From: Actinophytocola sp.
GTDB taxonomy: Bacteria > Actinomycetota > Actinomycetes > Mycobacteriales > Pseudonocardiaceae
Direction: 5' to 3'
Length of the DNA: 50,309 bases
NCBI GenBank assembly: GCA_009377385.1
Contig: WHUD01000001.1
Span: 1 to 50,309, forward strand
In this document: positions 7,755-28,375 of the stretch, piece after piece
How positions within the stretch are numbered: position 1 is the first letter of the stretch
Layout of the letters: each line of letters starts with the position of its first letter
Program-made: the position numbers and the translations under genes
Notes under the pieces: generated by a model
Database searches by the model: none
Seen by the model: the letters and a program-made list of their open reading frames with translations, nothing else
What the model was told of the DNA's origin: nothing

Positions 7755-8468
7755 GTGACGAACCGCCCGATGATCGCGCCCAGCATCCTGTCCGCCGACT
7801 TCACCCGCCTCGGCGAGGAGATCACCTCGATCGCGGGCGATGGCGACAACCGGGCCGACTGGGTGCACGTCGACGTCATGGACGGCCACTTCGTCCCGAA
7901 CCTCACGATCGGCCTGCCGGTGGTGCGTTCGCTGCTGACGACGTCCGACGTGCCGCTCGACTGCCACCTGATGATCGAGGACCCCGACCGGTGGGCGCCG
8001 GGCTACGCCGAGTCGGGCGCGTACAACGTCACCGTGCACGCCGAGGCCGCCCGCGACCCGATCATGCTGGCCAAGAACCTGCGGGCGGCCGGGTCGCGCG
8101 CCGGGCTCTCGGTCAAGCCGAAGACCCCGCTTGACGACTACGTCGAGGTGCTCAAGCACTACGACACGCTGCTGGTGATGTCGGTCGAGCCCGGCTTCGG
8201 CGGGCAGTCGTTCATCCCCGAGGTGCTGGACAAGGTCCGCACCGCGCGCAGGCTCGTCGACACCGGACACCTGACGCTGCTGGTGGAGATCGACGGCGGC
8301 ATCAACAACGACACCATCGAACAGGCTGCCGAGGCCGGGGTGGACTGCTTCGTCGCGGGCACCGCCGTCTACGGCGCCGACGACCCCGGCAAGGCGGTCG
8401 CGGCGCTGCGGGAGCAGGCGGCGTCGGCGGGATGCCGGCACAGGGGCGCACAGGACGGCCCCGGCTGA
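7755..8468 (+). CDS. rpe: Ribulose-phosphate 3-epimerase
   Basis: Rpe interconverts ribulose 5-phosphate and xylulose 5-phosphate in the pentose phosphate pathway, upstream of the ribulose 5-phosphate used for riboflavin. The TIM-barrel signatures are all present: IAPSILSADF, WVHVDVMDGHFVPNLTIG with the metal and catalytic residues, DCHLMIEDP, MSVEPGFGGQSFIP and the phosphate-binding VEIDGGINNDTI. The C-terminal 15 or so residues extend beyond the barrel and overlap the ribD start by one base (TGATG). The GTG at 7755 is chosen because MIAPSIL follows within five codons. Confidence 0.95.
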   Translation: MTNRPMIAPSILSADFTRLGEEITSIAGDGDNRADWVHVDVMDGHFVPNLTIGLPVVRSLLTTSDVPLDCHLMIEDPDRWAPGYAESGAYNVTVHAEAARDPIMLAKNLRAAGSRAGLSVKPKTPLDDYVEVLKHYDTLLVMSVEPGFGGQSFIPEVLDKVRTARRLVDTGHLTLLVEIDGGINNDTIEQAAEAGVDCFVAGTAVYGADDPGKAVAALREQAASAGCRHRGAQDGPG

Positions 8469-9487
8469 TGACCCCGGAACAGGCCATGCGGGACGCGATC
8501 GCGCTCAGCGAGGCCGTGCGGGGAACGACGAGCCCGAATCCGCCCGTCGGGGCGGTGATCTGCAATACGTGCGGCGTGCCGGTCGGACGCGGCGCCACCC
8601 AGCCGCCCGGCGGGCCCCACGCCGAGGTCATGGCGCTGCGCGACGCCGGGGACCGCGCCAGGGGCGGCACCGCCTACGTCACCCTGGAACCCTGCGCCCA
8701 CCACGGCCGCACCCCGCCATGCACCGACGCGTTGCTGGCCGTCGGTGTCCGCGCGGTGCACTACGCCGTCGCAGACCCTAGCCCGCTCGCCCAGGGCGGC
8801 GCGGCCGTGCTGGAGCGGGCGGGCGTCACCACGAGCGCGGGCCTGCTCGCCGAGGACGTCCGGCGTGGTCCGCTGCGCGCGTGGCTGCACTACATTCGCA
8901 CCGGCCGCCCGCACGTCACCTGGAAGTACGCCGCGACGCTGGACGGCAGGGTCGCCGCAGCCGACGGCACCAGCCGGTGGATCTCCGGCGAGCAAGCCCG
9001 CGCCGAGGTCCACGCGCTGCGCACCCAGGTCGACGCCATCGTCGCGGGCACGGGCACGGTCCTCACCGACGACCCGCAGCTCACCGCCCGCGACGCCGAG
9101 GGCCGCCCGCTGCCACGCCAACCGCTGCGCGTCGTGGTCGGCACCACCGCGCTCCCCGAGACCGCGCGGGTGCTCGACGACAGCGCCGAGACCGTGATCG
9201 TCGCCACCCACGACCCGGACAAGGTGCTCGCGGAACTCGCCGAGCGGGGCGTCGTCGACGTGCTGCTGGAAGGCGGCCCGACGCTGGCAGGGGCGTTCGC
9301 TGCAGCTGGCAGGATCGACCGGCTGCTCGGCTATCTCGCCCCCGCGCTCGCTGGTGCGGGTCCGGCCGCCCTCGGGGATGCTGGAGTGTCAACGGTCACC
9401 GACATGCACCGGTGGGTGGTCGAAGAGGTCACCATGACAGGGGATGATGTGCGGGTCAGCGCGATACCGGCTGCCCGGCAGGACTAG
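8468..9487 (+). CDS. ribD: Bifunctional riboflavin deaminase/reductase RibD
   Basis: RibD catalyses the deamination and then the NADPH-dependent side-chain reduction of the pyrimidine intermediate in riboflavin synthesis. The N-terminal zinc deaminase domain has TSPNPPVGAV, the zinc ligand and catalytic pair in HAEVMAL, and the PCAHHGRTPPC zinc motif. The reductase domain starts near residue 145 with RPHVTWKYAATLDGRVAAADG and ends with the LLEGGPTLAGAF segment. The ATG at 8468 shares one base with the rpe stop. An upstream in-frame ATG at 8432 lies inside rpe and is less likely. Confidence 0.95.
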   Translation: MTPEQAMRDAIALSEAVRGTTSPNPPVGAVICNTCGVPVGRGATQPPGGPHAEVMALRDAGDRARGGTAYVTLEPCAHHGRTPPCTDALLAVGVRAVHYAVADPSPLAQGGAAVLERAGVTTSAGLLAEDVRRGPLRAWLHYIRTGRPHVTWKYAATLDGRVAAADGTSRWISGEQARAEVHALRTQVDAIVAGTGTVLTDDPQLTARDAEGRPLPRQPLRVVVGTTALPETARVLDDSAETVIVATHDPDKVLAELAERGVVDVLLEGGPTLAGAFAAAGRIDRLLGYLAPALAGAGPAALGDAGVSTVTDMHRWVVEEVTMTGDDVRVSAIPAARQD

Positions 9488-9496
9488 GAGGTAGGC

Positions 9497-10150
9497 GTGT
9501 TCACCGGAATCGTCGAGGAGATCGGTGAGGTCATCGGCATCGAACAGGTGCCGAACGCCGCCCGGCTGAGCCTGTCAGGACCCCTGGTGACCACCGACGC
9601 GGAGCACGGCGACTCGATCGCGGTCAACGGCGTCTGCCTCACGGTGGTCGACGTCTCCGGCTCCACCTTCACGGTGGACGTCGTGCACGAGACGCTGGAG
9701 CGTTCCAGCCTGGCCAAGGTGCACGTCGGCGACGGCGTGAACCTGGAGCGCGCCGCCGCGGTCGGCGGCAGGCTCGGCGGGCACATCATGCAGGGCCACG
9801 TCGACGGCACCGGCACCTACCTCGCCCGCGACGGCTACGGCATGACGCGGTTCGCGCTGCCGAGGAACCTGTCCCGTTACGTCGTGGAGAAGGGCTCGAT
9901 CGCGGTGGACGGCGTGTCGCTGACGGTGGCGTCGGTGACCGACGATGAGTTCGCGGTCGCGCTGATCCCCACCACCCTCGAGATGACCAACCTGGGTACC
10001 AAGACACCAGGCGATCCGGTGAACCTGGAAGTCGACGTGCTTGCCAAGTACGTGGAACGGCTGATCGCGGCGCCCGCCGGGAATGCCAGCGCCCATCCCG
10101 GCGCTCAATCCGGTGGCGGCCCTGGCGATAATGTCGGCGAGAAGGAGTGA
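9497..10150 (+). CDS. ribE: Riboflavin synthase alpha chain
   Basis: This enzyme dismutates two 6,7-dimethyl-8-ribityllumazine molecules into riboflavin and the pyrimidine precursor. The product begins with the invariant MFTGIVEE and contains two lumazine-binding barrels: the first has [12 protein letters not shown] near residue 35, the second [12 protein letters not shown] near residue 135. The conserved [17 protein letters not shown] lies between them. About 25 Gly/Ala/Pro-rich residues extend past the usual end. The start follows an AGGAGG site nine bases after ribD, and the stop overlaps a GTG just before ribBA. Confidence 0.96.
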
Positions 10151-10152
10151 GC

Positions 10153-12430
<2,278 letters not shown>

Positions 12431-12461
12431 GCACGCGGTAGGGGCGCATCGGGCTTTCGCA

Positions 12462-12911
12462 TCAGAGCGCGACGATGCGCACCCGGTCGTCGAATCGCGT
12501 GAAGTCGCCGACGTTGAGGGTCACGAGGGCATCGACGCCGTGCGTCAGCATCGTGGCGACGATGTTCGCGTCATGCACTTGTTTGCCCCCGCGGTCGACC
12601 TCGGCGACAAGCTCGAGCAAGCGGGTATGGACCTTCTCGTTCTCAGCGAGCAGGCGCATGCGTTCCGCCAACGCCCTGACGTTGCCGACCGAGTCCGCCA
12701 GGCTGAGCCCCAGCCCGTTCCGCGCCTCGGGGCGCGTCGCTACCGAGAGGTACTCGCGCAAAATCTGACCGCTGGTGTACAAAGTCGTCCCACGCGCGGG
12801 CCATTCGTCCAGCGCGGCACGCGCGCGGGCGTGCTCCGCGCGGCCAGCGTCTGTGGCGGCGAGCAACACGTTGGTGTCGAGGACGATTCGGTCAGCCACC
12901 TTCGTCGTCAT
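12462..12911 (-). CDS. PIN-domain ribonuclease toxin (VapC family)
   Basis: PIN-domain toxins cleave RNA with magnesium. The fold is recognised from VLDTNVLLAATD at the N-terminus with the first catalytic Asp, a central Glu in REYLSVA, HDANIVATML with the third acid, and the final acidic residue near VGDFTRFDDRV. The 149-residue length is typical. The start lies inside the end of the upstream antitoxin gene (20-base overlap), the standard arrangement of vapBC. Its RNA target cannot be deduced. Confidence 0.88.
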   Translation of the reverse strand: MTTKVADRIVLDTNVLLAATDAGRAEHARARAALDEWPARGTTLYTSGQILREYLSVATRPEARNGLGLSLADSVGNVRALAERMRLLAENEKVHTRLLELVAEVDRGGKQVHDANIVATMLTHGVDALVTLNVGDFTRFDDRVRIVAL

Positions 12912-13122
12912 AGATGTCCTCTCGCCGCCAGGTTGCCTTCACGGATGTCGTCGTGGTGACCAACTGGATAGGGGCCGGTGCCTGGGCAGGCACGGGCTCT
13001 GCGGCGGCGTTCTCAAGGATCTCCAGCACCTCTTGCTGCATCGATCGACCATGCCGCTCCGCTCGTTCACGCAGCGCCGAGAGCGTGGACTCCGGCACGT
13101 TGCGGACGTGGATGGCAGGCAT
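12892..13122 (-). CDS. FitA/VapB-type ribbon-helix-helix antitoxin
   Basis: The 76-residue protein begins with a ribbon-helix-helix DNA-binding motif, MPAIHVRNVPESTLSALRERAERHGRSMQQEVLEILENA in outline: a beta strand, then two helices with the AERHGRSMQQEV pattern typical of FitA-like antitoxins. Its C-terminal tail (about residues 45-76) is rich in Pro/Ala and acidic residues and would wrap the PIN toxin encoded next. It probably autorepresses by binding the palindrome immediately upstream. The start at 13122 has no clean Shine-Dalgarno sequence. Confidence 0.87.
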   Translation of the reverse strand: MPAIHVRNVPESTLSALRERAERHGRSMQQEVLEILENAAAEPVPAQAPAPIQLVTTTTSVKATWRREDIYDDEGG

Positions 13123-13132
13123 GCCTTCATGG

Positions 13133-13158
13133 TAGCGCTAGCGCTAGCACTAGGCTAG
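13133..13158 (-). promoter_or_regulatory. Palindromic operator/promoter of the vapBC pair
   Basis: TAGCGCTAGCGCTA at 13133-13146 is a perfect 14-base palindrome built from TAGCGC units, followed by CACTAGGCTAG with further TAG/CTAG half-sites. It ends ten bases upstream of the antitoxin start on the minus strand. Ribbon-helix-helix antitoxins bind such short inverted repeats, so it is the expected autoregulatory site. TANNNT-like hexamers within it could serve as the -10. Confidence 0.6.
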
Positions 13159-13198
13159 TTGCGGGCAGCTGGGGCAGGGTTCGCCGCCCAGGGCATGT

Positions 13199-13996
13199 TC
13201 ACACCGCCAGGTCCGCCACCACAGGGGCGTGGTCGGACACGCCGGTGCCCTTGCGCTCGTCGCGGTCGACGTAGCAGTCCGTGACCGCCGTCGTGAAGGC
13301 GGGATTGCCGTACACCAGGTCGATCCGCATGCCGTTGTTGTTCGGGAACGCGAGCTGGCGGTAGTCCCAGTAGGTGTACGGATGGTCGTGCTTCAACGCG
13401 CGCGGGAACACGTCCGTGAGCCCGGCCTCCCGCAACGCGGCCAGCGCGGTGCGCTCCGGCTCGGTCACGTGGGTGCTCTCCGCGAACCGGCTCACGTCCC
13501 ACACGTCGTCGTCGGTTGGCGCGACGTTGAAGTCCCCGAGCACGGCGAACGGACGCGCGTCGGCTAGCTCAGCAACCGCCGTGGCGCGCAGCGCCTCGAG
13601 CCAGCGGAGCTTGTACTCGTAGTGCGGGTGCGACGGCTCGCGGCCGTTGGGGACGTACACCGACCACACCCGCACGCCGTCGCAGGTCGCGCCGATCGCG
13701 CGCGGCTCCGTGGTCTCGAACAGCGCGCCGTCGGCCAGGTAGCCGGGCTCATCGGTCAGCCCCCGCGTCACATCCGCGAACCCCACCCTGGACAGGATCG
13801 CGACGCCGTTCCACCGTCCGGTGCCGTGCGCGGCGATGTCGTAGCCCAGCTCGGCGACCTCAGCGGCCGGGAACGCCTCAGTTGCGCACTTGGTCTCCTG
13901 CAGGCACAGCACGTCCGGCTTGGCCCGTTCCAGCCACCCGAGCAGCCGGGGCAGCCGGGGCCGCACCGAGTTCACGTTCCACGTAGCGATCCGCAC
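13199..13996 (-). CDS. xthA: Exodeoxyribonuclease III (AP endonuclease)
   Basis: The enzyme cleaves DNA at abasic sites and removes 3' blocking groups in base excision repair. All endonuclease/exonuclease/phosphatase-family motifs are visible: MRIATWNVNSVRPRLPRLLGW, CLQETK with the metal-binding Glu, VYVPNG, GDFNVAPTDDDVWD with the catalytic Asp/Asn, YTYWDYR, RIDLVYGN and the terminal SDHAPVVADL. The 265-residue length is normal. It stands between the toxin-antitoxin pair and the MDMPI-type gene on the minus strand, only 13 bases after the latter. Confidence 0.95.
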   Translation of the reverse strand: MRIATWNVNSVRPRLPRLLGWLERAKPDVLCLQETKCATEAFPAAEVAELGYDIAAHGTGRWNGVAILSRVGFADVTRGLTDEPGYLADGALFETTEPRAIGATCDGVRVWSVYVPNGREPSHPHYEYKLRWLEALRATAVAELADARPFAVLGDFNVAPTDDDVWDVSRFAESTHVTEPERTALAALREAGLTDVFPRALKHDHPYTYWDYRQLAFPNNNGMRIDLVYGNPAFTTAVTDCYVDRDERKGTGVSDHAPVVADLAV

Positions 13997-14009
13997 GATC
14001 CGACCCTAA

Positions 14010-14801
14010 CTACCGGCTCCACCGCACCCGCACCAGATCGGGCCATGCCCGCAGCGCGTCGGCGTCCCCGATGGTCGCCAGCGCATCGAGCGGGCGACGG
14101 TTCCACAGCGCGAGGTAGACATCCTCCGCGCTGCCGCGCACGGTGACGTCCGCCCCGCCAACGGCACCACTCGCGGGCAGATCCGTCACTCGTTCGGTGA
14201 CGACCGGCTCGGTGCTGACCCGCAGCAGCCAGCCCACCCCGGTGTCGCTGGCATGCAGCGCGATGGTGACCGGCGCGTCGCTGCGGAGCTTGCCGGAGCG
14301 GCGGACGACGAACCCGGTCACCAGCTCGTCGATCCCGTCGGTGGCGACGGCGGGGTCCACCGGGGTCGGGCCGTCCGCCGCCAGTTCGACGTCGACGCCG
14401 TGCATCGTGGTCTCGTGCGTCTGCCTGCGGGCCCAGAACACCAGCGGTGACGGCGCAGGCAGGAACGACCAGCACTCCAGCTCGGCAGGCGCCGACTCGA
14501 TGGCGTTAATCAGCGCGGCGTGGCCCTCCCGGAACCAGTCAAGCAGCGCGTCGTCCGCCGGGCGGCGGTCGGCGTCGCGGTGCGGGTCAGCGCCGGGCTC
14601 GACCGCCTCGCCGGGCGAGGTCAGCGCCTCCCGCACGTGGCGGGTGGCCCAGCGGTGCACTCCGCTGGTGTGGAAGACGAGGTCGCGCACCGTCCAGTCC
14701 GGGCAGCTCGGCACCGCCGCGTCGAAATCCGCCCGCTCGACGGCCGAGACCAGCCGCTCGCCCGCGTCGCGCAGCGCGGCGACGTACTCCGGTATCTCCA
14801 T
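14010..14801 (-). CDS. Maleylpyruvate isomerase/DinB-family, probably mycothiol-dependent
   Basis: The 263-residue product matches the actinobacterial family with an MDMPI/DinB-like four-helix N-terminal domain. It begins MEIPEYVAALRDAGERLV and shows VPSCPDWTVRDLVFHTSGVHRW with the family W-x-x-x-D-L-x-x-H metal-site pattern; further histidines occur in RRQTHETTMHGVDVELA. The C-terminal part, from about residue 180, is the small MDMPI C-terminal domain. Members use mycothiol as cofactor where studied, but this substrate is unknown. The start at 14801 is preferred over an upstream in-frame start because homology-like sequence begins there. Confidence 0.8.
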   Translation of the reverse strand: MEIPEYVAALRDAGERLVSAVERADFDAAVPSCPDWTVRDLVFHTSGVHRWATRHVREALTSPGEAVEPGADPHRDADRRPADDALLDWFREGHAALINAIESAPAELECWSFLPAPSPLVFWARRQTHETTMHGVDVELAADGPTPVDPAVATDGIDELVTGFVVRRSGKLRSDAPVTIALHASDTGVGWLLRVSTEPVVTERVTDLPASGAVGGADVTVRGSAEDVYLALWNRRPLDALATIGDADALRAWPDLVRVRWSR

Positions 14802-14814
14802 GCTTGGCAAGCAT
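14800..14814. promoter_or_regulatory. Palindrome at the MDMPI-type gene start
   Basis: ATGCTTGGCAAGCAT is a 6-3-6 inverted repeat whose left end overlaps the ATG of the minus-strand gene starting at 14801. It could be an operator, but with a single instance this is only a suggestion. Confidence 0.3.
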
Positions 14815-14892
14815 GCCAGAGCCCACCGACGGTTCCGGTTCGGCCTGCGGAGCGTGATCGGGTGGGGGCGGTATGCGGTCGGTGCCCCGACG

Positions 14893-14898
14893 TAGGCT
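14893..14898 (+). promoter_or_regulatory. Putative -10 element of leaderless uvrC
   Basis: TAGGCT ends seven bases before the uvrC GTG at 14905, and no Shine-Dalgarno sequence intervenes. Transcription would start at or next to the start codon. Confidence 0.5.
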
Positions 14899-14904
14899 GG
14901 TGCC

Positions 14905-16926
14905 GTGGCTGACCTGTCCACTACTCGTCATGCGTCCCTGTCCCGTGGGGCGTCGCGCAACGGCTCGTTCCGCCCGTCGCCGGGAAGCATCCCTGACGCG
15001 CCGGGCGTGTACAAGTTCCGCGACGCCGACCGCAGGGTGATCTACGTCGGCAAGGCGAAGAGCCTGCGCAGCAGGCTCAGCAGCTACTTCGCCGACCCCA
15101 CCGGGCTGCACCCGAGAACGCGGCAGATGGTCAGCACGGCGGCCGACGTCGAGTGGACCGTTGTCACCACCGAGGTCGAGGCGCTCCAGCTGGAGTACAA
15201 CTGGATCAAGGAGTTCGACCCCCGGTTCAACGTCCGCTACCGCGACGACAAGTCGTACCCCGTGCTCGCGGTGACGCTGAACGAGGAATTCCCCCGCCCG
15301 CATGTCTACCGGGGGCCACGCAAGAAAGGCGTGCGCTACTTCGGCCCTTACGCGCACGCCTGGGCGATCCGCGAGACTCTCGACCTGCTGCTGCGGGTGT
15401 TCCCGGCCCGCACCTGCTCCAATGGCGTGTTCCGCAGGCACAAGCAGATCGGACGCCCCTGCCTGCTCGGCTACATCGACAAGTGCGCCGCGCCCTGCGT
15501 CGGCGAGGTGAGCCCGGAACGGCACCGGGAGATCGTCGAGCAGCTGTGCGACTTCCTCGCGGGGCGCACCGAGAGCATGGTGCGCGACCTGGAGCGGGAG
15601 ATGACCGCAGCGTCCGAGTCGCTTGACTTCGAGCGTGCCGCCCGGTTGCGGGACGACATCGCCGCGCTGCGCAGGGCGATGGAGAAGCAGGCCGTGGTGT
15701 TCTCCGACGGCACAGACGCCGACGTCGTCGCGTTCGCGCACGACGAGCTGGAAGCGGCGGTCCAGGTCTTCCACGTGCGCGGTGGCAGGGTGCGCGGCCA
15801 GCGCGGCTGGGTGGTCGACCGCGACGAGGCGCCTGAGGAGACGACCGGCACCGACGCGGTCCGCGCGCAGTTGGTGGAGCAGTTCCTCGCCCAGTTCTAC
15901 GGCGAGCAGGCCGAGCTGGCAGCCCAGGCCGAGGGCAGCGGTCCGCCGGTGCCGCGCGAGGTGCTGGTCCCCGCGTTGCCGGACGACGCCGATGCCGTTG
16001 CGGAGTGGCTGTCCGGGCTGCGCGGCTCGAAGGTGCGACTGCGGGTGCCGCAGCGCGGCGACAAGCGCGCGCTGGCCGAGACGGTGGAGCGCAACGCGAA
16101 GGAGGCGCTGACGCAGCACAAGCTCCGCAGGGCGTCCGACCTCACGTCCCGCTCCGCCGCGCTGAACGAGCTGCAGGACCTGCTCGGCCTCGACACCGCC
16201 CCGCTGCGGATCGAGTGCGTCGACATCAGCCACATCCAGGGCTCGGACGTCGTCGCGTCGCTGGTGGTCTTCGAAGACGGCATTCCGCGCAAGTCGGAGT
16301 ACCGCCGGTTCGCGATCAAGGAGGCGGCGGAGAAGGGCGACGTCGCCTCGATCGCCGAGGTGGTGCGCCGCCGCTTCGCCCGGTACCTCGCGGAGGCGGA
16401 GGGAGCCGAGACGTCGGACACCACCGACGCCCCTGAGCCGCCGGACCCCAAGCAGCGCAAGTTCGCCTACCCGCCGAACCTGCTCGTCGTGGACGGCGCC
16501 GGCCCGCAGGCCACGGCAGCCGCAGACGTCCTCGGCGACCTCGGCATCACCGACATCGCCGTGATCGGCCTCGCCAAACGGCTGGAGGAGGTGTGGCTGC
16601 CCGCAGACGAGTTCCCGGTCATACTGCCGCGTACCGCCGATGCGCTGTACCTGCTGCAGCGGGTGCGCGACGAGGCCCACCGGTTCGCGATCCGGTATCA
16701 CAGGGACAAACGGGCCAAGCGCGTGCGAGCATCAGAACTCGACGCCGTGCCGGGGCTGGGGAAGGCCCGCAAGGCCGCGCTGATCAAGCACTTCGGCTCG
16801 GTCAAGAAGCTCAAGCAGGCACGGGTCGACGACATCGCCGATGTCAAGGGATTCGGCCGGACCACAGCGGAAACGGTCTACGCGGCGCTGCACGGCACGC
16901 CACAGGACAAGGACGGACAACAGTGA
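14905..16926 (+). CDS. uvrC: Excinuclease ABC subunit C
   Basis: UvrC makes the two incisions of nucleotide excision repair with UvrB. The domains in order are GIY-YIG nuclease ([20 protein letters not shown], residues about 31-50), the cysteine-containing region ending [11 protein letters not shown], the UVR motif that binds UvrB ([16 protein letters not shown], about residue 235), the RNase H-like endonuclease domain ([20 protein letters not shown], with catalytic Asp in DISH), and two helix-hairpin-helix motifs at the C-terminus ([12 protein letters not shown] and [10 protein letters not shown]). At 673 residues it is full length. The GTG at 14905 may be leaderless. Confidence 0.97.
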
Positions 16927-18853: not shown

Positions 18854-19840
18854 ATGGCGATGACCGCCGCCGTCAAGGACGAGCTGAGCAGGCTGGAGTT
18901 CACCAAGATCGGGCCGAGGCGTTCCGAGGTGGCGTCGATGTTGCGATTCGCGGGTGGCCTGCACATCGTGAGCGGCAGGGTGGTCGTCGAGGCCGAGCTG
19001 GACACCGGCTCGGTCGCGCGCAGGCTGCGCAAGGAGATCCACGAGCTGTACGGGCATCAGTCCGACGTCCACGTCATCTCGTCGAGCGGCCTGCGCAAGG
19101 GCACCCGGTACGTCGTGCGCGTCGTCAAGGACGGCGAGGGCCTTGCGCGGCAGACCGGACTGATCGACCAGCGAGGGCGGCCGGTGCGTGGCCTGCCCGC
19201 CGCCGTCGTCTCCGGCGGAATCGCCGACGCCGAGGCGGCATGGCGCGGCGCCTTCCTCGCGCACGGTTCGCTCACCGAGCCGGGTCGCTCGTCGTCGCTT
19301 GAGATCACCTGCCCAGGGCCGGAGGCGGCGCTAGCGCTGGTCGGCGCGGCGCGCCGGATCGGCATCCAGGCGAAGTCACGCGAAGTCAGGGGAACGGACC
19401 GGGTCGTCGTCCGCGACGGGGACGCCATCGGCGTGCTGTTGACCAGGCTCGGTGCGCACACCAGTGTGCTGCGCTGGGAGGAGCACCGGATGCGCCGCGA
19501 GGTGCGGGCGACGGCGAACCGGCTGGCGAACTTCGACGACGCGAACCTGCGGCGGTCCGCGCGGGCGGCGGTCGCCGCGGCGGCAAGGGTGGAGCGCGCG
19601 ATGGACATCCTCGGCGAGAGCGCCCCCGAGCACCTGTTGTCCGCTGGCAGGCTTCGGCTGTCGAACCGGCAGTCGTCGCTCGAGGAGCTTGGCCAGCTCG
19701 CCGACCCGCCGATGACCAAGGACGCTGTGGCAGGCCGGATCCGCAGGTTGCTCGCACTGGCGGACAAGCGCGCCAAGGATCTGGGCATCCCGGACACCGA
19801 GTCCGCCGTCACCGAGGAGATGCTCGAAGCCGAAGCGTGA
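18854..19840 (+). CDS. whiA: Sporulation/cell-division transcription regulator WhiA
   Basis: WhiA has an N-terminal LAGLIDADG-like fold without nuclease activity and a C-terminal helix-turn-helix, and controls division genes (with WhiB in Streptomyces). The product shows the family start [16 protein letters not shown], the sequence [19 protein letters not shown], the [18 protein letters not shown] linker and the C-terminal [23 protein letters not shown]-type segment (here [10 protein letters not shown]). The 328-residue length is standard. It follows yvcK by 49 bases, with AGGAAGTGGAGGGG upstream of the ATG. Confidence 0.96.
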
Positions 19841-19862: not shown

Positions 19863-21425
19863 GTGAACGGCGGGCCCAGGTGCGGCGAGCTGGAGGCTGG
19901 CAGGCTACCGTCTGACGTCGTGCGTGAGGATGCGAGCGGGATGATCGTCGACGGCGGCCTTGCCCGCAGGCTCAAGGCGCTCGCGTGCACCGCCCCGTTG
20001 CACGACCTCGATGCCCGCAAGGCGAAGCTGGACTGGGCCGACGCCACGGCATACCAGATGGCCGAGATCGCGTTGCACACCATCGACCAGGTCACCGTGG
20101 CGATGGACTTCGACACCGGCGCGAGCCACGAGGTGATCGTGCGCAGGCTGTTGCCGTTCATCGCGGCGCAGGCGCCGCACCGGGGGAAGGCCGAGCACGA
20201 GAAGGTGGCTCGCTGGGTGCTGGACAACCTGCTCAACGTCGGCACGGTGGATCGCGGGTTCCGCAGCATCTATGGCACCGTCGGCCCCGACGGCGCCTAC
20301 GAGCGCAGGGCGTTCGACTTCAAGCTGCTCGTCGAGCTGTCCGCGCCGAACGGTGAGATCTACCTGCGCGCCACCGACGAGGCGATCAACGTGCTTGTCG
20401 GGGCGCTGGACACCGATGTCGAGTCCGCGCAGATCGCCGCGGAGGTGAAGCTGGAGAACCTGATCAAGCGCGGCAGGCTGGCCGACGCCAAGCTGGCCGC
20501 CGAGCAGGCTCGCTACCGCACCGTGCAGTACGGCGAGACGTTGCGGACGATCCTGGACGCCACCCGCCGCGACGTCCGCTCAGTCGACTGGGAACACGCC
20601 GTGCCTGAGCTGCTCGACTCGGCACTGGAGCACATCGAGTCGCGGTTCCAGGCGGAGAACGCAATTCTGCGCAACATCACCAAGGCCCGCGACGAGGCGG
20701 AGGACCCCGGCCGCAAACGTAGCGCTGCCGAGTTGGTGGAGATCGTCACCGACTGCATCACTCGCCACACCCAGCTCCAGGCCAGGCTGCAGGCCGCTGG
20801 CGCCTACTTCCGCGCCGAGCAGGACCGGCAGCAGTTCGCCGGGCCGCCCCGCAAGGGCGGCGTCGACGTCTTCGGGCAGATACTGGTGCCCACCATGGGA
20901 CTCGGCGTCGGCGACGCCAAAGCGACGGTGGAGGCGTACTTCCGCGCGGCCAGTGGGCCGAGCACCCCGGGCGTCGCCACGCTGCCGTCGCTGGTGTCGA
21001 TGCTGCTGCGGCCGGCCCCGGAGCGCAGCACGCTGGTCGGTGAGCTGCCGGAACCGGAGCTGGCGCCCGCCGAGGACACTGATCGGTTCAGCCAGGAGCA
21101 CTGGCGGCGCGCCGACGAGCTGCTCGACCTCACCGAGGTGCCGCGCAGGCTCTCCGGGCTGCTGGAGGAGGCCCGCGAGACCGACGCCGAGCTGGCGCGG
21201 CTGGTCGCGCTGCGGGTGCTGCACGCCTACAGCCCCGAGGTCGGTGCCGCGGTGCGCACCGGAGAGGCCACCGCGCTGATCGCCGTCGACGACGGCACCC
21301 CGCTGGACGACCCGGAGTTCGGCGGCATCGACCTGCTGGTCGTTGCGGCGATGGTGTCGGCGGAGCTGGCGGAGCCCGGCGCGGATCCCGACGACGCCCC
21401 CGCCCCAGCCGAGGAGGTCGCGTGA
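19863..21425 (+). CDS. Putative kleisin-like (MukF/MksF/JetA-like) subunit of an SMC-type complex
   Basis: I do not recognise a named family with certainty. The product is about 520 residues. Its N-terminus has a helical, possibly winged-helix region (LARRLKALACTAPL to ALHTIDQVTVAM). A long helical centre follows at about residues 180-290 (IAAEVKLENLIKRGRLADAKLAAEQ), recalling the pattern of MksF/JetA proteins. The C-terminus is acidic and Ala/Pro-rich. Function is inferred mainly from position: it is the first of three coupled genes, and the third encodes a giant SMC-like ATPase. The start is unsure: GTG at 19863, or ATG at 19941 with GAGG ten bases upstream. The lack of DUF3375-like sequence argues against a canonical Wadjet type I JetA. 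Confidence 0.55.
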   Translation: MNGGPRCGELEAGRLPSDVVREDASGMIVDGGLARRLKALACTAPLHDLDARKAKLDWADATAYQMAEIALHTIDQVTVAMDFDTGASHEVIVRRLLPFIAAQAPHRGKAEHEKVARWVLDNLLNVGTVDRGFRSIYGTVGPDGAYERRAFDFKLLVELSAPNGEIYLRATDEAINVLVGALDTDVESAQIAAEVKLENLIKRGRLADAKLAAEQARYRTVQYGETLRTILDATRRDVRSVDWEHAVPELLDSALEHIESRFQAENAILRNITKARDEAEDPGRKRSAAELVEIVTDCITRHTQLQARLQAAGAYFRAEQDRQQFAGPPRKGGVDVFGQILVPTMGLGVGDAKATVEAYFRAASGPSTPGVATLPSLVSMLLRPAPERSTLVGELPEPELAPAEDTDRFSQEHWRRADELLDLTEVPRRLSGLLEEARETDAELARLVALRVLHAYSPEVGAAVRTGEATALIAVDDGTPLDDPEFGGIDLLVVAAMVSAELAEPGADPDDAPAPAEEVA

Positions 21426-22222
21426 GCCCAAAGGACGCAGCGAAGAACGCCGAGGCGGCGGCACGCCTGATCGCCTACGGGTTGCGGCCGAAGCAGTTGC
21501 CGGCCCGCGACGCGAGCTACGCCGAGCTGGTGCGCCGCTACGGCGAGGACCGCGAGTTCACCCAGCTCACCCACGCGGTCGCGGCCGGGCTCGGGCTGAT
21601 GGTGCTCGACGTCAGCAACCAGGCCGGCGCGGTGCTCGCCGCGACCGACGAGTCCGCGTTCGAGATCAAGATGGACAGCTACGCGCGGCAAAGCAAGATC
21701 CGCGAACGCCGCGAGACCGAGAAGGTCATGCACGGCGTCATCCACCTCGCGGTTGCGGCGCTGGCGTTCCCGCGTCCGGACGATCTCGGCAACGACACGT
21801 ACGTCGGCCGCGTCAGCGTCGACCAAGTCGACGCCGTGGTGCGGGAAGCCTGCCGCATCCTCGACGAACGCGCCGAACAGGCCGAGGCCAACGACGACCC
21901 GCCGTCCGACGCGCCCGAGCTGGAGCAGGCGTGGCGCGCGTACGCGCGGCGGCCGGAGACCGCGACAACCAAGGACGGCAGGCTCGCGCCGGACACCACC
22001 CGAGGCATGATCAGCAGGGCGTTGCGGTTCCTGGCCGAGCAGGGCTTCCTGGTGCACGTCAACGCCGACGGCGGCGGCACCTACCGGACGACGCCGCGCT
22101 ACCAGGTGCAGGTGCGGGAACTGGCGGCCGACGCCGCGTTCACAGAGCTGCTTGAACTCGACGTGGTGGCGATCTCCGGCGAGGACGGGTCACTGCGCGC
22201 TGGCACAACCGGGACTCTCTAG
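21422..22222 (+). CDS. Putative KITE-like (MukE/MksE/JetB-like) subunit
   Basis: The 266-residue protein overlaps the upstream stop (GTGA) and ends 12 bases before the SMC-like gene, so its product almost certainly acts with both. The N-terminal half includes ASYAELVRRYGEDREFTQLTH and a hydrophobic core (AAGLGLMVLDVSNQAGAVL). The C-terminal part looks like a winged helix: DTTRGMISRALRFLAEQGFL is a recognition-helix-like segment and a Gly-rich turn (NADGGGTYRTT) fits the wing. Tandem winged-helix KITE proteins bind SMC-kleisin complexes. The assignment is by architecture and context, not by a recognised signature. Confidence 0.55.
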   Translation: MSPKDAAKNAEAAARLIAYGLRPKQLPARDASYAELVRRYGEDREFTQLTHAVAAGLGLMVLDVSNQAGAVLAATDESAFEIKMDSYARQSKIRERRETEKVMHGVIHLAVAALAFPRPDDLGNDTYVGRVSVDQVDAVVREACRILDERAEQAEANDDPPSDAPELEQAWRAYARRPETATTKDGRLAPDTTRGMISRALRFLAEQGFLVHVNADGGGTYRTTPRYQVQVRELAADAAFTELLELDVVAISGEDGSLRAGTTGTL

Positions 22223-22234
22223 GAGGCTGCTGCG

Positions 22235-25200
22235 ATGTACGAGCTATCCCGGGTGCGGCTGCACTCCGTTGGCCCAGCGGGCGCCCGGTACCAGGACGTG
22301 GTGCTCGACCTCAGCGGCGTGGGCGAGCCGGTCAGCTCGCCATCGCAGGAGGCGCTGTTCAGCGCGGGCGTGCACCTGGACAACGAGCAGGCAGGCCCGC
22401 CGAGGCGGCCCTCTCCAGCGAGCGTGCTGTTCCTGGAGAACGGTGGCGGCAAGTCGGTGCTGATCAAGCTGATCTTCTCGGTGATGCTGCCCGGCCGCAG
22501 GCAGGTCGTTGGTACCACCAACACCCGGGTGCTTGAGAAGTTCGTCGGTGCCAAGGACGTCGCGCACGTGGTGCTGGAGTGGCAGCACACCCAAACGGGG
22601 CAGCGCGTGATCACCGGCAAGGTCTCGGAGTGGCGCGGGCACGTCGTCTCCTCCGATCCCGCGAACCTGCTCGACTCCTGGTACTGCTTCCGGCCCAGCG
22701 TGTCGTTGCAGCTCGACTCGCTGCCGCTGACCGAGGACAACCGGCTGCTGACGATGTCGGCGTTCAAGGACCGGCTCGACGCGCAGTACCGCGAGGCCAC
22801 CGAGATCGAGCTGTTCTGGACCCGCAAGCACCACGAGTGGACCGAACACCTCGGCATGGTCGGGCTGGACACCGAACTGTTCCGCTACCAGCGCGCGATG
22901 AACGCGGGGGAGGGCGAGGCCGCCGATGCGTTCTCGTTCGGCACCGACGAGGCGTTCGTGGAGTTCCTGCTGCGCGCGGTGCTTGACGAGCAAGCGCCCG
23001 CCGACCTGGCCGATGTGGTGCGCAACTACGCAGACAGCCTGAGCCAGCGCGGCGAGCTGATGACCGAGCGGAGCTTCGTGTCCGGCGCGATGGAGCTGCT
23101 GACGCCGCTCGTCGAGTCGGAGTCGTTCGCGTCGGCGTCCCGCTTGCTCGCGGAGACCGCCGCACGGGAGGCCGGTGAGTTCGCCGCGGCCGTCATCGCC
23201 CGCGACACCGCGGAGAAGGAACGGCTGGGCGGGCTGTCGCAGCAGGTGGACGAGCTGCGCGACGCCGAACGCCTCGCCGAGGGTGACCTGCGCAGGCGCA
23301 ACGCCGTTGTCACCGAGCTGCGCCGGGTCGTGGCGGGACTGCGGCTGGACGCCGCGCAGGCCGACTCCGACCGGCTCGCCGAGCAGGTCGCCGAGGCCCG
23401 CACGACGGCGCGCGCCTGGCGGGCGACGTCGACTGTGCTGGGCCACATGGCCGCCGCGCGCAAGGCGGACGCCACCCGCAAGCTGGTCGGCAGCCGGGAG
23501 CAGCGTGCGCAGCCCGCGCTGGCCGCCAAGGAAGAGGCCGCGACGGCACTGGCGCGCGGCTTGCTCGCCATCGCCGAGGGCGCAGGGGCGGACGCCGACG
23601 CCGCCGAACACGAGGCCGACGAGGCGCGTACCGCCGCCACCGAGGCACAGCGCGAGCGCGACGCCGCCACCAGGGCCGCCGCCGAGCACGGCGCCCGCGC
23701 GGACTCCCTGCAGACCCGCGTCGACGAGGTCAACGAGAGCGTCAAGGAGGCGATCGCGGCGGGCGCGCTGCCAGCGGGCACCGAGGTCGCCGACGCCGAG
23801 CGGCAGGCCCGCGCCGCCGCCGAGGACGCCGAGGCCGCCTTGGTGCGGTCCGAACGCGAGCTTGAGCGGGTGGAGTCCGAACTCGCCGACGCACAGGACA
23901 CGCTGCACGGCCTCGACCAGCGGCAGTCCGCGGCGGCCACCGCGCGAGAGCACGCCGACGCCGAACTCGCCACCGCCCAGCGCAGGGCCGATGCGCTGGC
24001 GGGCGAGCCGAGGCTGGCCGAGGTGCTCGGCGTCGACGACGTCCGGCTGGACTCCGACCTTGAGGCGCTACGGGCACGGCTGGCCGAGGCACGCAGCGAG
24101 ACCGAGCGGGCGCAGACCGAGCGGTGGGTCGCCGCGTCGAACGACGAACGCGCATTGGCCGCACTTGGCAGCGGCGGACTGCTGCCCGCACCCGACGACG
24201 TCCGCGAGGCGTTGGATCTGCTGGAGCAGCACGGCATCACGGCGTGGTCCGGCTTGCGGTTCCTGTCCACACTGGACGCCGAGAGCAGGCGGACCGCGCT
24301 GCGGCGGCATCCGCACCTTGTCTCCGGTGTGCTGATCAACGACCCCGCCCGGCTGGCGCAGGCCGAGCAGGTGCTCACCGAGGCCACGTTGCTGCCCAGC
24401 GCGGTGCTCGCCGTGGGCGTCACCAGCACGATCACCTCGGACGGCACCGACGCGGCCGCCGGTGCCGAGTTCATCGTGCCGCCGAACCCCGCGCTGTACG
24501 ACGAGGACGCGGCGGAGGAGACGCGGGAGGCGATCTCGGCGCGGCAGTCCAGCAGGCAGGAGGAGATCGCGCGGCTGGGCGAGCGCGCCGAGGCCGACGC
24601 CGCGCTGGAGTGGAAGCTGGCCGCCTGGCGGGAGGACTACCCCGCTGGCGCCCTGACGACGCTGGCCGAGCGCGCGGACACCACCAATTCCGAGCACGAC
24701 TCCGCCACCGCCGCCGCGCGGCAGCAGCGCGCCACCGTGGACCGGCTCACCGAACGGCGGACGGAACTGCGCGCCGAGGTCCCCGCGCTGCGCGACGCCG
24801 CACGGAAAGCCGCGTCGGACCTGGGCATCATCGGTGAGCTCGCCACCGCCGCAGCCAGGATCGGGCAGTGGACGGACGAGTGCGCCACCGCGCGGGAAGC
24901 GGCCGAGCAGGCGCGACAGGAAGCGGAGACGGCGGAGGTGTCCGCGACGCGCTGGCGGGAACGGGTCGCCGAGGCGCAGCGGAAGGCCGACGAGTACAAG
25001 CGGACGGCCTCCAGCGCGCGGGCGGAGCTGGCCGAGGTGCCTGGCGGCGGCTCGGTGAGTACGGACCAGCCGGTGCCGGAGGAGCCGGTCGCTGTGCTGC
25101 GGCAGAGCTTCACGGCGGCAGCTGCGGCGTACGCGAAGGTGGAGGTCGGCAACGACCTGCGCGCCGAGCTGGACCATGCGGAGCACGCCGAGGCGACCGC

Positions 25201-26701
25201 GCGCGCCGCGCTTGAGGCGCTCGACCCTGACGTCCGGATGCTGGCGACGAAGCTGCTCGACACCCCGGACGGCTCGGACGCCGCCGCGCGGGAGGCGGCG
25301 GAACGCCGTGCTGAGCGGGCGCTGCAGGCGTTGGAGATGGAGCGCGGCGACGCGATCGGCGTCCTCGCAGCGCGCAGGGCGGAGTACGAGGCGCTGCCGG
25401 CCGCGCCGTCCGTTTTGGACTCGATGGAGCGGCCGAGCTCGATCGCCTACGGCATGGACCTGATCGAGTCCGCGACGGAAGAGGTCTCGTCCGCCGCGCG
25501 TGAGGCGGAGGAGTTGCAGGCCGCCCGGGCGGAGGCAGAGCACGCGCTGCAGACGGCGGAGGCCGCCGCGACCGGCTTCGGCATGCTCGCGGAGTCGTTG
25601 ACCGCCGTCGCCGAGGGGCACACCGGAGAGGACGTCACCCCGGACGACGGCGACGTCGAGACCGCGCGAGAGCGGGCGCAGACGCTGACCAGCAAGCTCA
25701 GCACCGCGCAGGCCGCGGTGACAGACGCCGAGAAGAAGGTGCGCGGTTACGTCGATGAGCTGGTGCAGTACGCGGCGGAGAAGCGGTTCGAGGAGCTGGG
25801 CAGCCCGGTGCGTAGGCAGATCATCTCGGTGCGCCGCGATTCGCTGCCCGAGCACGCCGAGGAGTGGGTCGCCGCGCTGCGGCCCCGGCTGCGCACGCTG
25901 ACCGGCGACCTCGACCAGATCGACCGGCACCGCTCGGGCATCGTCACCCGGCTGCAGGGCATGGTCGAAGGCGGGCTCCGGGTGCTGCGGGCGGCGCAGC
26001 GGCTGTCGCGGCTGCCGGACGGCCTCGGCGACTGGTCGGGCAGCGAGTTCCTGCGCATCCGGTTCACGGAGCCGGACGAGTCGCAGCTCGCCGAGCAGTT
26101 GGGGGAGGTCGTCGACGAGGCGGCGGCGTTGCAGGTGCGGGACGCGAAACGCGGCAAGGGCGGTAAGGACAGCAAGACCGACGGGATGTCGTTGCTGCTG
26201 CGCGGCGTGCGGGCGGCCGTGCCGAAGGGCTTCCGGATCGACATGCTCAAGCCGGACTCGGTGCTGCGCACGGAACGGCAGCGGGTGTCCGAGATCCGCG
26301 ACGTCTTCTCCGGTGGTCAGCAGCTCACGGCGGCGATCATCCTGTACTGCACGATGGCCGCGCTGCGCGCCAACGACAAGGGACGCCTGCGCGACCGGCA
26401 CTCCGGCGTGCTGTTCCTCGACAACCCGATCGGCCGCGCCTCGGCGGGCTACCTGCTCGAACTGCAGCGCGCCGTCGCGGAGGCACTGGGCGTGCAGCTG
26501 ATCTACACGACGGGCCTGTTCGACGCCGGGGCGCTGAGCGAGTTCCCGTTGATCATCCGGATGCGCAACGACGCCGACCTCCGCGCTGGCCGCAAGTACC
26601 TGTCGGTCGACGCCACGATCCGCAATGCCCTCGACGAGCTTGGCGAGGAGGACGGCGTCGCGCGGCTGTCTGCGACTCGTGTGTACCAGCGCACCGGCTG
26701 A
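22235..26701 (+). CDS. Giant SMC/MukB-like coiled-coil ATPase
   Basis: The 1488-residue product has ABC-type ATPase halves at the two ends and a long coiled coil between. Walker A is ENGGGKSVLIKL at about residues 68-79. Roughly residues 300-1250 are Ala/Glu/Arg-rich with heptad character. The C-terminal head has a signature-like VFSGGQQLTAAIIL near 1358 and a Walker B strand VLFLDNPIGRAS near 1393-1404, where Asp1396 is followed by Asn and Pro instead of the usual catalytic Glu. A conserved-looking LIYTTGLFDAGALSEFPLII follows. The layout is that of MukB/MksB/JetC or Rad50-like proteins. An AGGAGG site precedes the ATG. It is the last gene of the operon. Plausible roles are plasmid or phage defence, or chromosome organisation. 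Confidence 0.75.
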   Translation: MYELSRVRLHSVGPAGARYQDVVLDLSGVGEPVSSPSQEALFSAGVHLDNEQAGPPRRPSPASVLFLENGGGKSVLIKLIFSVMLPGRRQVVGTTNTRVLEKFVGAKDVAHVVLEWQHTQTGQRVITGKVSEWRGHVVSSDPANLLDSWYCFRPSVSLQLDSLPLTEDNRLLTMSAFKDRLDAQYREATEIELFWTRKHHEWTEHLGMVGLDTELFRYQRAMNAGEGEAADAFSFGTDEAFVEFLLRAVLDEQAPADLADVVRNYADSLSQRGELMTERSFVSGAMELLTPLVESESFASASRLLAETAAREAGEFAAAVIARDTAEKERLGGLSQQVDELRDAERLAEGDLRRRNAVVTELRRVVAGLRLDAAQADSDRLAEQVAEARTTARAWRATSTVLGHMAAARKADATRKLVGSREQRAQPALAAKEEAATALARGLLAIAEGAGADADAAEHEADEARTAATEAQRERDAATRAAAEHGARADSLQTRVDEVNESVKEAIAAGALPAGTEVADAERQARAAAEDAEAALVRSERELERVESELADAQDTLHGLDQRQSAAATAREHADAELATAQRRADALAGEPRLAEVLGVDDVRLDSDLEALRARLAEARSETERAQTERWVAASNDERALAALGSGGLLPAPDDVREALDLLEQHGITAWSGLRFLSTLDAESRRTALRRHPHLVSGVLINDPARLAQAEQVLTEATLLPSAVLAVGVTSTITSDGTDAAAGAEFIVPPNPALYDEDAAEETREAISARQSSRQEEIARLGERAEADAALEWKLAAWREDYPAGALTTLAERADTTNSEHDSATAAARQQRATVDRLTERRTELRAEVPALRDAARKAASDLGIIGELATAAARIGQWTDECATAREAAEQARQEAETAEVSATRWRERVAEAQRKADEYKRTASSARAELAEVPGGGSVSTDQPVPEEPVAVLRQSFTAAAAAYAKVEVGNDLRAELDHAEHAEATARAALEALDPDVRMLATKLLDTPDGSDAAAREAAERRAERALQALEMERGDAIGVLAARRAEYEALPAAPSVLDSMERPSSIAYGMDLIESATEEVSSAAREAEELQAARAEAEHALQTAEAAATGFGMLAESLTAVAEGHTGEDVTPDDGDVETARERAQTLTSKLSTAQAAVTDAEKKVRGYVDELVQYAAEKRFEELGSPVRRQIISVRRDSLPEHAEEWVAALRPRLRTLTGDLDQIDRHRSGIVTRLQGMVEGGLRVLRAAQRLSRLPDGLGDWSGSEFLRIRFTEPDESQLAEQLGEVVDEAAALQVRDAKRGKGGKDSKTDGMSLLLRGVRAAVPKGFRIDMLKPDSVLRTERQRVSEIRDVFSGGQQLTAAIILYCTMAALRANDKGRLRDRHSGVLFLDNPIGRASAGYLLELQRAVAEALGVQLIYTTGLFDAGALSEFPLIIRMRNDADLRAGRKYLSVDATIRNALDELGEEDGVARLSATRVYQRTG

Positions 26702-26751
26702 TCGCTGGGTCAGCACGGCGGAGCGCGCTGCTGTCTGCTCGGCGACCATCG

Positions 26752-28155
26752 TCAGAAGGGTGGGTCGTCGGGTTGTCGGGGTTCGGGTATGCCGGGTGGG
26801 CCTGGACTGTCCTGTGTGGACTCCGGGTTGTCTGCTTCGGTGGCTGGTTTCGTCGTCGTTGTTCGTGGTTTCGGTTCTGCTGTAGTTCCTGGTTGTCGTC
26901 TTGGTTTCAGCACGGGTCTGCGTTGTCGGGTGATGCGGTGCCCGGTGGGGGTGGTGATGGTGACGGTCTGCTTGTCGGGGCTGAAGTCGATGCGCCAGCC
27001 GGGTTCTTCTTTGAGGTTGTTGTGGTGGGCGCAGGCGGCTTCGCCGTTGTTGACGCTGGTGTCACCGCCGTGGTGGCGGGGTTGGATGTGGTCGAAGTGG
27101 CAGTGTTGGGCGGTGCGGTGACAGCCGGGGATGGCGCATTCGCGGTCGCGGGTGTGGATGACTTCGCGGATGGTGGCGTTGGGGCGGTAGCGGCTGCGGC
27201 CGAGGTCGAGGGGCGCGCCGGTGGCGGGGTCGCAGACGACTTTGCGCCAGATGCTGTTCGGGTTGGTCATGAGGTGGCGGGCGATCGGTGCGGGGATATG
27301 GCCGTAGCCGGCGAGTTCGCAGCCGTCGTCACTGATGTCGAGGGCGGTGTCGAGGGGCATGTGCAGGTAGACCATCGCCGCCGGTGACGCCCCGCCTGTC
27401 TCACTGGTGGTGGGGTGCAGGAGGCGGTCGGTGAGGATGTCGGCGCGGAGTTGGTCGAGGCTGCGCTGCTCACCACGGTGTCGGAGGCGGCGGGCTTCGG
27501 TGTCGATGCTGGCGTAGGCGGCCTGCGCGGCTTCGGCGGGTAACTGAGCGGTGAGCCGGGACATGCTGTCCTCACCGGGTAGGAGTTCGACCTTGCGGCC
27601 GGTGCGGGCGCGGCGGGCACGGTCGGTGAGCCCGTCGGGGTCGACGGTGTGCACGGCGCGGCGGGCGGTGCGGCGGATCTCGGTGGGGTTCTTGCCCGCG
27701 AGGTGACCGGCGAGACGGGCGTCGACCCGGCGGGCGGTGTCGTCGTCGAGATGGACGGTGAGGTCGAGGACGCGGCTGGCGGGATAGGGCTCGACGTGCC
27801 CGTCGTGCATCGCGGCGAGCAACACGGGGTGGCGGTGGCGGAGTTGGTGGGCCTGGGTGAGGCGGTCGGCGGCCTGGTGGCGGGTGATCCGCAGCGTGTA
27901 GGCGATCTCGTCCTCGGTGCCGGGGGCGTCGTCGCGGAGGCGGGCGAACCGGGCCAGCAGCCTCGCTTCGAGGGCCCCTGCGCGGGCGCGCAGCTTGCGC
28001 AGCGAGTCGAGCGCGGCGAGGGTTTCGGCATCGGTGAGGGCGTCGAGGTCGGCGTCGTCGAGGGTGAGCGCGTCGTGGTCGTGCCATTCGGGGTCGCGGG
28101 GCAGAAAGCCCTGCGACCGATCCAACCGAAGGGTATCGCTCACATGTTCGATCAT
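26752..28155 (-). CDS. DUF222 / HNH endonuclease domain protein (13E12-repeat type)
   Basis: The product matches the multicopy actinobacterial family with an N-terminal DUF222 domain and a C-terminal HNH nuclease module. The DUF222 part covers about residues 25-300 (LRKLRARAGALEARLLARFA, ITRHQAADRLTQAH, DGHVEPYPASRVLDL). The HNH site spans RDRECAIPGCHRTAQHCHFD, then HIQPRHHGGDTSVNNG and CAHHNNLK, with paired cysteines, the DH and the final H-N-N all present, so it looks intact. The Pro/Thr-rich tail is disordered. Biological role is unknown. It is convergent with the SMC-like gene 50 bases away and is not its missing nuclease by family. Start chosen at 28155 (MIEHVSDT). Confidence 0.85.
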   Translation of the reverse strand: MIEHVSDTLRLDRSQGFLPRDPEWHDHDALTLDDADLDALTDAETLAALDSLRKLRARAGALEARLLARFARLRDDAPGTEDEIAYTLRITRHQAADRLTQAHQLRHRHPVLLAAMHDGHVEPYPASRVLDLTVHLDDDTARRVDARLAGHLAGKNPTEIRRTARRAVHTVDPDGLTDRARRARTGRKVELLPGEDSMSRLTAQLPAEAAQAAYASIDTEARRLRHRGEQRSLDQLRADILTDRLLHPTTSETGGASPAAMVYLHMPLDTALDISDDGCELAGYGHIPAPIARHLMTNPNSIWRKVVCDPATGAPLDLGRSRYRPNATIREVIHTRDRECAIPGCHRTAQHCHFDHIQPRHHGGDTSVNNGEAACAHHNNLKEEPGWRIDFSPDKQTVTITTPTGHRITRQRRPVLKPRRQPGTTAEPKPRTTTTKPATEADNPESTQDSPGPPGIPEPRQPDDPPF

Positions 28156-28375
28156 ATCCACGGTTAGACAACGACGGCACGGCATGACCGAAGGTCAACC
28201 CAGGCGTGCGATTACCACGAATGGACGAGCGCCCGTTGATCTCCGCCGCTTCGAGTTTCGGCACGTCGCCGGGTCTGCGCGGGGTATCCGCCTCCCATGC
28301 GGGTGAGGCATCTTACCGTCGCGTAGCTTTACACTGACCGACGTCGTTATGCCGTTACCCGACGAGGAGGTTTCC

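What the first reader, a model, noticed from the sequence alone, without database searches (positions are those of the whole stretch)
19863..26701. Three-gene SMC/MukB-like operon without a recognisable nuclease subunit, directly after whiA
Seen: three coupled genes for about 520, 266 and 1488 residues; the last has split ABC motifs (ENGGGKS near residue 70, FSGGQQ near 1358) around a coiled coil of roughly 900 residues. Known: MukBEF, MksBEF(G) and Wadjet JetABC(D) combine a kleisin, a winged-helix KITE protein and an SMC ATPase, and the defence versions add a TOPRIM nuclease (MksG/JetD). Inference: this is a related complex that lacks the nuclease locally, and its first gene does not look like the DUF3375 JetA of Wadjet type I. 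It may be an undescribed actinobacterial condensin-like or plasmid/phage-restricting system, or one that recruits a nuclease encoded elsewhere.
Basis: partly seen in the sequence, partly recalled or inferred. Interest (0 to 1): 0.65.

Follow-up and report, generated by a model that had tools for sequence, protein, structure and literature searches.

The report
Core Wadjet complex without its nuclease
The three genes encode the DNA-looping motor of the Wadjet anti-plasmid system (type III) without the DNA-cutting subunit, and almost every Amycolatopsis and Streptomyces genome sampled carries the same vertically inherited, nuclease-free motor, so an immunity machine seems to have become a second, apparently unstudied chromosomal SMC complex.

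Summary
The three coupled genes are at the stated coordinates. They are not an unknown family. PADLOC profiles identify gene 1 as JetA3 (E 1.9e-205) and gene 3 as JetC3 (1846 bits); gene 2 has a MukE/JetB-like KITE fold. This is a type III Wadjet motor without JetD, the nuclease.

The missing nuclease is real and general. JetD3 does not follow jetC in 68 of 77 readable related loci or in the window. In 61 of 71 such genomes JetD3 was not found anywhere; in the other ten it lies beside another jet copy (JetC only a fragment in one). JetA is in 80/80 Amycolatopsis and 193/199 genomes of a genus inferred to be Streptomyces; JetD3 is in only 15 of those 199. In the window's clade the locus sits in fixed core synteny, tracks its neighbours' phylogeny, has dN/dS about 0.01-0.16 and intact ATPase motifs, and coexists with canonical SMC. 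JetD-less forms recur on the tree. All four plasmid-borne JetC3 copies keep JetD.

Best reading: a domesticated, nuclease-free Wadjet motor working as a second chromosomal SMC complex, parallel to MksBEF. The anatomy and evolution are shown; the chromosomal function is inferred. No paper on it was found in the open-access library searched.

The parts
19863..21425 (+). jetA3, kleisin, 520 aa
   Evidence: PADLOC JetA3 E 1.9e-205 over residues 26-508. Model similar to the MukF N-terminal half (Z 11-12, residues 44-327) and to JetA 8q72_E (Z 8.6, 284 aligned), but mean pLDDT is only 62.5 and unrelated helical bundles score as high.
21422..22222 (+). jetB3, KITE protein, 266 aa, overlapping jetA by 4 bp
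   Evidence: No family-profile match, and the JetB of a complete JetABCD locus has none either. Model pLDDT 66.8. Best structural matches: E. coli Wadjet JetB 8as8_C (Z 8.5, 179 aligned), P. aeruginosa JetB 8dk1_F (Z 7.8) and MukE. The position between jetA and jetC is conserved in all relatives.
22235..26701 (+). jetC3, SMC ATPase, 1488 aa
   Evidence: PADLOC JetC3, 1845.7 bits, residues 1-1486. LENGGGKS, FSGGQ and VLFLDNPIGRAS conserved in JetD+ and JetD- relatives.
26702..26751 (.). where jetD is expected in a complete type III operon; none here and no remnant
   Evidence: JetD3 directly follows jetC in 9 related loci. No remnant above chance after jetC in the JetD- loci. No JetD3 in the window's genome G000.
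18854..19840 (+). whiA, upstream core-gene neighbour (with uvrC, rapZ and yvcK); context, not part of the complex
   Evidence: Pfam. In the Haloechinothrix/Amycolatopsis/Prauserella loci the jet genes lie between the uvrC-rapZ-yvcK-whiA side and gap-pgk-tpi.

Best explanation
This is a nuclease-free type III Wadjet motor (JetA kleisin, JetB KITE, JetC SMC ATPase) that has been domesticated as a core chromosomal complex. Inferred mechanism: JetC dimers bridged by JetA, with JetB, use ATP to capture and extrude DNA loops as in other Wadjet/MukBEF complexes. With no JetD, completing a loop on DNA does not lead to cleavage, so the motor works as a second SMC complex beside the canonical SMC, most likely in chromosome organisation or segregation. 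Shown: family identity of JetA and JetC, absence of JetD, fixed synteny, vertical descent, purifying selection and conserved ATPase motifs. Inferred: loop extrusion and the chromosomal role.
For: JetA3/JetC3 profiles; KITE-like and kleisin-like folds. jetC not followed by JetD in 68 of 77 readable loci plus the window. JetD3 not found anywhere in 61 of 71 comparable genomes; where present in the other 10 it lies next to another jet copy. JetA in 80/80 Amycolatopsis and 193/199 g77 genomes (192/194 of good quality), JetD3 in 15/199 of g77. Class sample: JetC3 in 61 of 395 genomes, JetD3 in 13. Fixed whiA-side to gap synteny; JetA/JetC distances track WhiA, YvcK, UvrC and Gap, Mantel rho 0.68-0.89. 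dN/dS 0.01-0.16. ATPase motifs conserved. Canonical SMC in 26/26 genomes checked. All four plasmid JetC3 records also carry JetD. Precedent: P. [quoted passage not shown]
Against: No experiment; loop extrusion by any type III complex is unproven. The residue after the Walker B aspartate is Asn where ABC ATPases usually have the catalytic Glu. JetD+ relatives share it, so it is not a mark of decay, but hydrolysis may differ from type I. The fold models are of modest confidence. Conservation and synteny do not by themselves separate chromosome maintenance from non-cleaving defence.
Confidence: 0.6

Rival explanations
1. JetABC still acts in defence without cutting: it loads on small circular or invading DNA and compacts, silences or mis-segregates it, much as Smc5/6 restricts extrachromosomal DNA.
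For: All characterised Wadjet systems are anti-plasmid (PMC10586767). The motor part is intact.
Against: Near-universal, vertically inherited and in fixed core synteny, unlike typical defence genes. The plasmid-borne copies all keep JetD, so cleavage appears to be retained where mobility is seen.
Confidence: 0.2
2. JetABC recruits a nuclease encoded elsewhere, for example the JetD of a type II Wadjet or an unrecognised nuclease.
For: The window's genome also encodes a complete type II Wadjet with JetD2 on another contig (L098).
Against: JetD3 is absent from most genomes and otherwise sits beside another jet copy. DUF2399 (JetD2-type) is present in only 21 of 65 such genomes. No gene is conserved next to jetABC across the JetD- lineages, and the HNH neighbour is unique to the window.
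Confidence: 0.12
3. A decaying remnant of a defence system that lost its effector.
For: JetD has been lost, apparently several times (tree needs 7 state changes).
Against: All three genes are open in all loci, dN/dS is far below 1, and the genes are kept in 80/80 and 193/199 genomes.
Confidence: 0.03
4. Annotation or assembly artefact: JetD lost at a contig break or replaced by the HNH insertion.
For: The window's genome is a 688-contig draft, and an HNH gene lies directly downstream.
Against: The downstream region is contiguous in the window. The JetD-less arrangement recurs in dozens of species, including complete chromosomes such as L075, and in Haloechinothrix halophila without the HNH gene (L019).
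Confidence: 0.01

Closest known systems
Wadjet type III (JetABCD)
   Same: Same JetA3 and JetC3 families, same gene order A-B-C; JetD3 follows jetC in sister loci
   Different: JetD3 nuclease absent at the locus and from the genome; core-genome synteny and vertical inheritance instead of patchy or plasmid occurrence
MksBEF of P. aeruginosa / MukBEF
   Same: Kleisin-KITE-SMC operon without a nuclease; [quoted passage not shown]
   Different: No profile match to Muk/Mks families; descends from type III jet genes; found mainly in mycelial actinomycetes
MksBEFG / EptABCD (type I Wadjet) of Corynebacterium and mycobacteria
   Same: Actinobacterial SMC-kleisin-KITE complex
   Different: Type I, has the MksG/JetD nuclease and restricts plasmids (PMC10123090)
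SMC-ScpAB
   Same: Chromosomal SMC complex, core gene
   Different: Separate protein; canonical SMC is present as well in 26/26 genomes checked

Membership tests
Wadjet type III | JetA3 subunit | tested here: met
   PDLC00567 E 1.9e-205 over residues 26-508
Wadjet type III | JetC3 SMC subunit | tested here: met
   PDLC00588, 1845.7 bits, full length
Wadjet type III | JetB3 KITE subunit | tested here: inconclusive
   No PADLOC JetB profile matches it, nor the JetB of a complete locus; predicted fold nearest to JetB 8as8_C (Z 8.5) and MukE
Wadjet type III | JetD3 TOPRIM nuclease in the operon (PADLOC requires all of JetABCD, PMC9252829) | tested here: not met
   None in the locus, none in genome G000
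Wadjet type III | Restricts plasmids by cleavage | not testable with these tools
   Needs experiment; unlikely without JetD
MukBEF/MksBEF | Sequence membership in Muk/Mks families | tested here: not met
   No Pfam match to any Muk family at E up to 1; no sequence match to solved Muk or Jet chains
MukBEF/MksBEF | Kleisin + KITE + SMC without nuclease | tested here: met
   Profiles and folds; JetD3 absent
SMC complex (general) | ABC head with Walker A, signature and Walker B motifs around a long coiled coil | tested here: met
   LENGGGKS, FSGGQ, VLFLDNPIG conserved; Asn in place of the usual catalytic Glu
SMC complex (general) | ATP-dependent DNA loop extrusion | not testable with these tools
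   Needs a single-molecule assay

The most novel reading that the evidence does not exclude
Streptomyces, Amycolatopsis and related mycelial actinomycetes carry an unrecognised second core SMC complex, domesticated from type III Wadjet by loss of the nuclease (apparently more than once), which helps organise or segregate their multigenomic hyphal chromosomes.
Probability: 0.5. Interest if true: 0.8.

Novelty: new variant of a known kind. Interest (0 to 1): 0.62.

Why it matters
Wadjet is known as a plasmid-cutting immune complex, and a review already speculates that MukBEF/MksBEF came from such systems by loss of JetD. Here that step can be seen on a tree: nuclease-free, vertically inherited forms recur, beside complete, apparently mobile JetABCD relatives, sometimes in the same genome (A. 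palatopharyngis, G246). If JetABC shapes chromosomes in Streptomyces and Amycolatopsis, a central model for bacterial chromosome folding and development has a second SMC that studies of SMC alone have missed. It also warns that JetABC hits in defence surveys need not be defence.

Tried and rejected
HNH (13E12) neighbour as replacement nuclease: absent from all 80 related loci. JetD supplied in trans: JetD3 elsewhere sits beside another jet copy, and JetD2-type genes are patchy. JetD remnants after jetC: only chance-level matches. Loss of JetD-interface residues: windows with relatively lower conservation in JetD- proteins (JetA segment 305-319, JetB 94-108, JetC 46-60) reach only z about -3 in a scan of many windows; inconclusive. 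Solved-structure search by sequence: no meaningful match for JetA, JetB or JetC. Phage records: no JetA. Retention versus regain of JetD in A. rifamycinica (L068): its JetD is sister to the JetD of L091/L095/L166 (99/96), as expected from the JetABC tree, but parsimony favours a gain; unresolved.

Full report
1. Observation. Three coupled ORFs of 520, 266 and 1488 aa lie at 19863-21425, 21422-22222 and 22235-26701 (+). They start 22 bp after whiA and follow uvrC, rapZ and yvcK. The SMC motifs are as described. The neighbour at 26752-28185 (-) is a DUF222-HNH protein.

2. Identity. Pfam and NCBIfam give nothing useful. PADLOC gives JetA3 (E 1.9e-205) for gene 1 and JetC3 (1846 bits, full length) for gene 3. 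Gene 2 matches no JetB model, but neither does the JetB of a complete JetABCD locus, so this is a gap in the library. AlphaFold models from family alignments are of modest confidence (pLDDT 67 and 63). The JetB model is closest to E. coli and P. aeruginosa Wadjet JetB (Z 8.5, 7.8) and MukE. The JetA model resembles the MukF N-terminal half (Z 11-12) and JetA (Z 8.6), although unrelated helical bundles score as high. The operon is therefore the motor part of a type III Wadjet.

3. The nuclease. In a complete operon JetD3 directly follows jetC. 80 related loci were fetched; in 77 of them jetC is readable to its end. Nine of the 77 have JetD3 after jetC (L068, L081, L082, L083, L088, L091, L095, L096, L097; profile-confirmed for examples). 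The other 68 and the window do not. A JetD3 profile searched in 79 genomes found none in the window's genome. Of 71 genomes whose locus has no adjacent JetD (two of these loci are cut by the contig end), 61 had none anywhere. Of the ten with a JetD3 elsewhere, eight have it beside a full second JetABC (L091, L175, L176, L178-L181, L183), one beside JetB and JetC (L177) and one beside only a JetC fragment (L182). These genome searches score a limited number of first-look candidates per genome, so single misses are possible. No JetD remnant was seen after jetC. The window's genome has a complete type II Wadjet on another contig (L098), but JetD2-type genes occur in only 21 of 65 comparable genomes.

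4. Distribution. JetA is in all 80 genomes of G017's genus, at 72-77% identity to the window. That genus is Amycolatopsis, inferred because G017 contig C45 has the same length as the A. regifaucium contig of L042. JetA is in 193 of 199 genomes of genus g77 (192 of 194 of good quality), while JetD3 is in 15 of those 199. g77 is unnamed; I infer Streptomyces from its share of the class sample, its genome sizes and a cvnABCD-type conservon next to the jet genes (own knowledge of conservons). In a sample of 395 genomes of the class JetC3 is in 61, from three families, and JetD3 in 13. Some genomes hold both an orphan JetABC and a separate JetABCD: A. palatopharyngis (L033, L091) and G246 (L161, L162).

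5. Evolution. In the Haloechinothrix/Amycolatopsis/Prauserella clade the genes lie between the uvrC-rapZ-yvcK-whiA side and gap-pgk-tpi, with variable genes in between. JetA and JetC distances correlate with those of WhiA, YvcK, UvrC and Gap (Mantel rho 0.68-0.89; highest of 500 permutations 0.28-0.48). The concatenated tree needs seven changes of JetD state. JetD-less groups are the window's clade, g77, family f32, Pseudonocardia, Sciscionella and Cellulomonas, with JetD+ loci interspersed; the root, and so the number of losses, is not fixed. A. rifamycinica (L068) has an intact JetD as a 1.08 kb segment after a jetC that is about 93% identical at the DNA level to its relatives. Whether this is retained or regained is open. 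All four plasmid JetC3 records also carry JetD.

6. Function retained. All three genes are open in all loci. dN/dS in JetD- pairs is about 0.01-0.16; one JetD+ pair gives 0.08-0.27. Walker A, signature and Walker B regions are conserved. The residue after the Walker B Asp is Asn in nearly all JetC3 examined, JetD+ and JetD- alike. Canonical SMC is also present in 26 of 26 genomes checked, so JetABC is an additional SMC.

7. Mechanism. Best supported is a domesticated Wadjet motor: an ATP-driven DNA-looping complex without cleavage, probably acting on the chromosome. This follows the precedent of P. aeruginosa MksBEF, which PMC10586767 says probably arose from JetABCD by JetD loss and contributes to chromosome organisation. 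The chromosomal role is inference. Non-cleaving defence is the main rival.

8. What is known. PADLOC requires all four genes and files MukFEB-like sets under 'Wadjet other' (PMC9252829). A survey of Actinobacteria reports Wadjet enriched in the phylum and, in Streptomyces, often towards the chromosome ends (PMC10482375). A 2026 Streptomyces SMC paper mentions SMC and MukB but, in the passages found, no second SMC of Streptomyces (PMC13121528). I found no paper on a JetD-less type III complex, but only an open-access library was searched, so novelty is provisional.

Noticed in passing
L098 (G000:C4:1-16426), 7920-16010, - strand: The window's genome also encodes a complete type II Wadjet (JetA2, JetB2, JetC2, JetD2).
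   Followed up: partly
window 26411-26443 (JetC residues 1393-1403): Type III JetC has Asn after the Walker B Asp (LDNP) where ABC ATPases usually have the catalytic Glu, in JetD+ and JetD- proteins alike.
   Followed up: partly
L068:16767-17810: A. rifamycinica alone in its clade has an intact JetD3 after jetC, as a clean extra segment; retained or regained.
   Followed up: partly
window 26752-28185: A DUF222-HNH (13E12-type) gene directly after jetC, absent from all 80 related loci; looks like a recent insertion.
   Followed up: yes
L159-L161, L163-L165, L172, L173: In genus g77 the jet genes lie next to a histidine kinase-roadblock-DUF742-GTPase set (conservon) and a LamB/YcsF-MFS-GntR set.
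   Followed up: no
L169, L171, L174 and the g77 loci: JetC of g77 and f32 is longer (about 1,520-1,730 aa in the matched segment) than in the window's clade, with length differences probably in the coiled coil.
   Followed up: no
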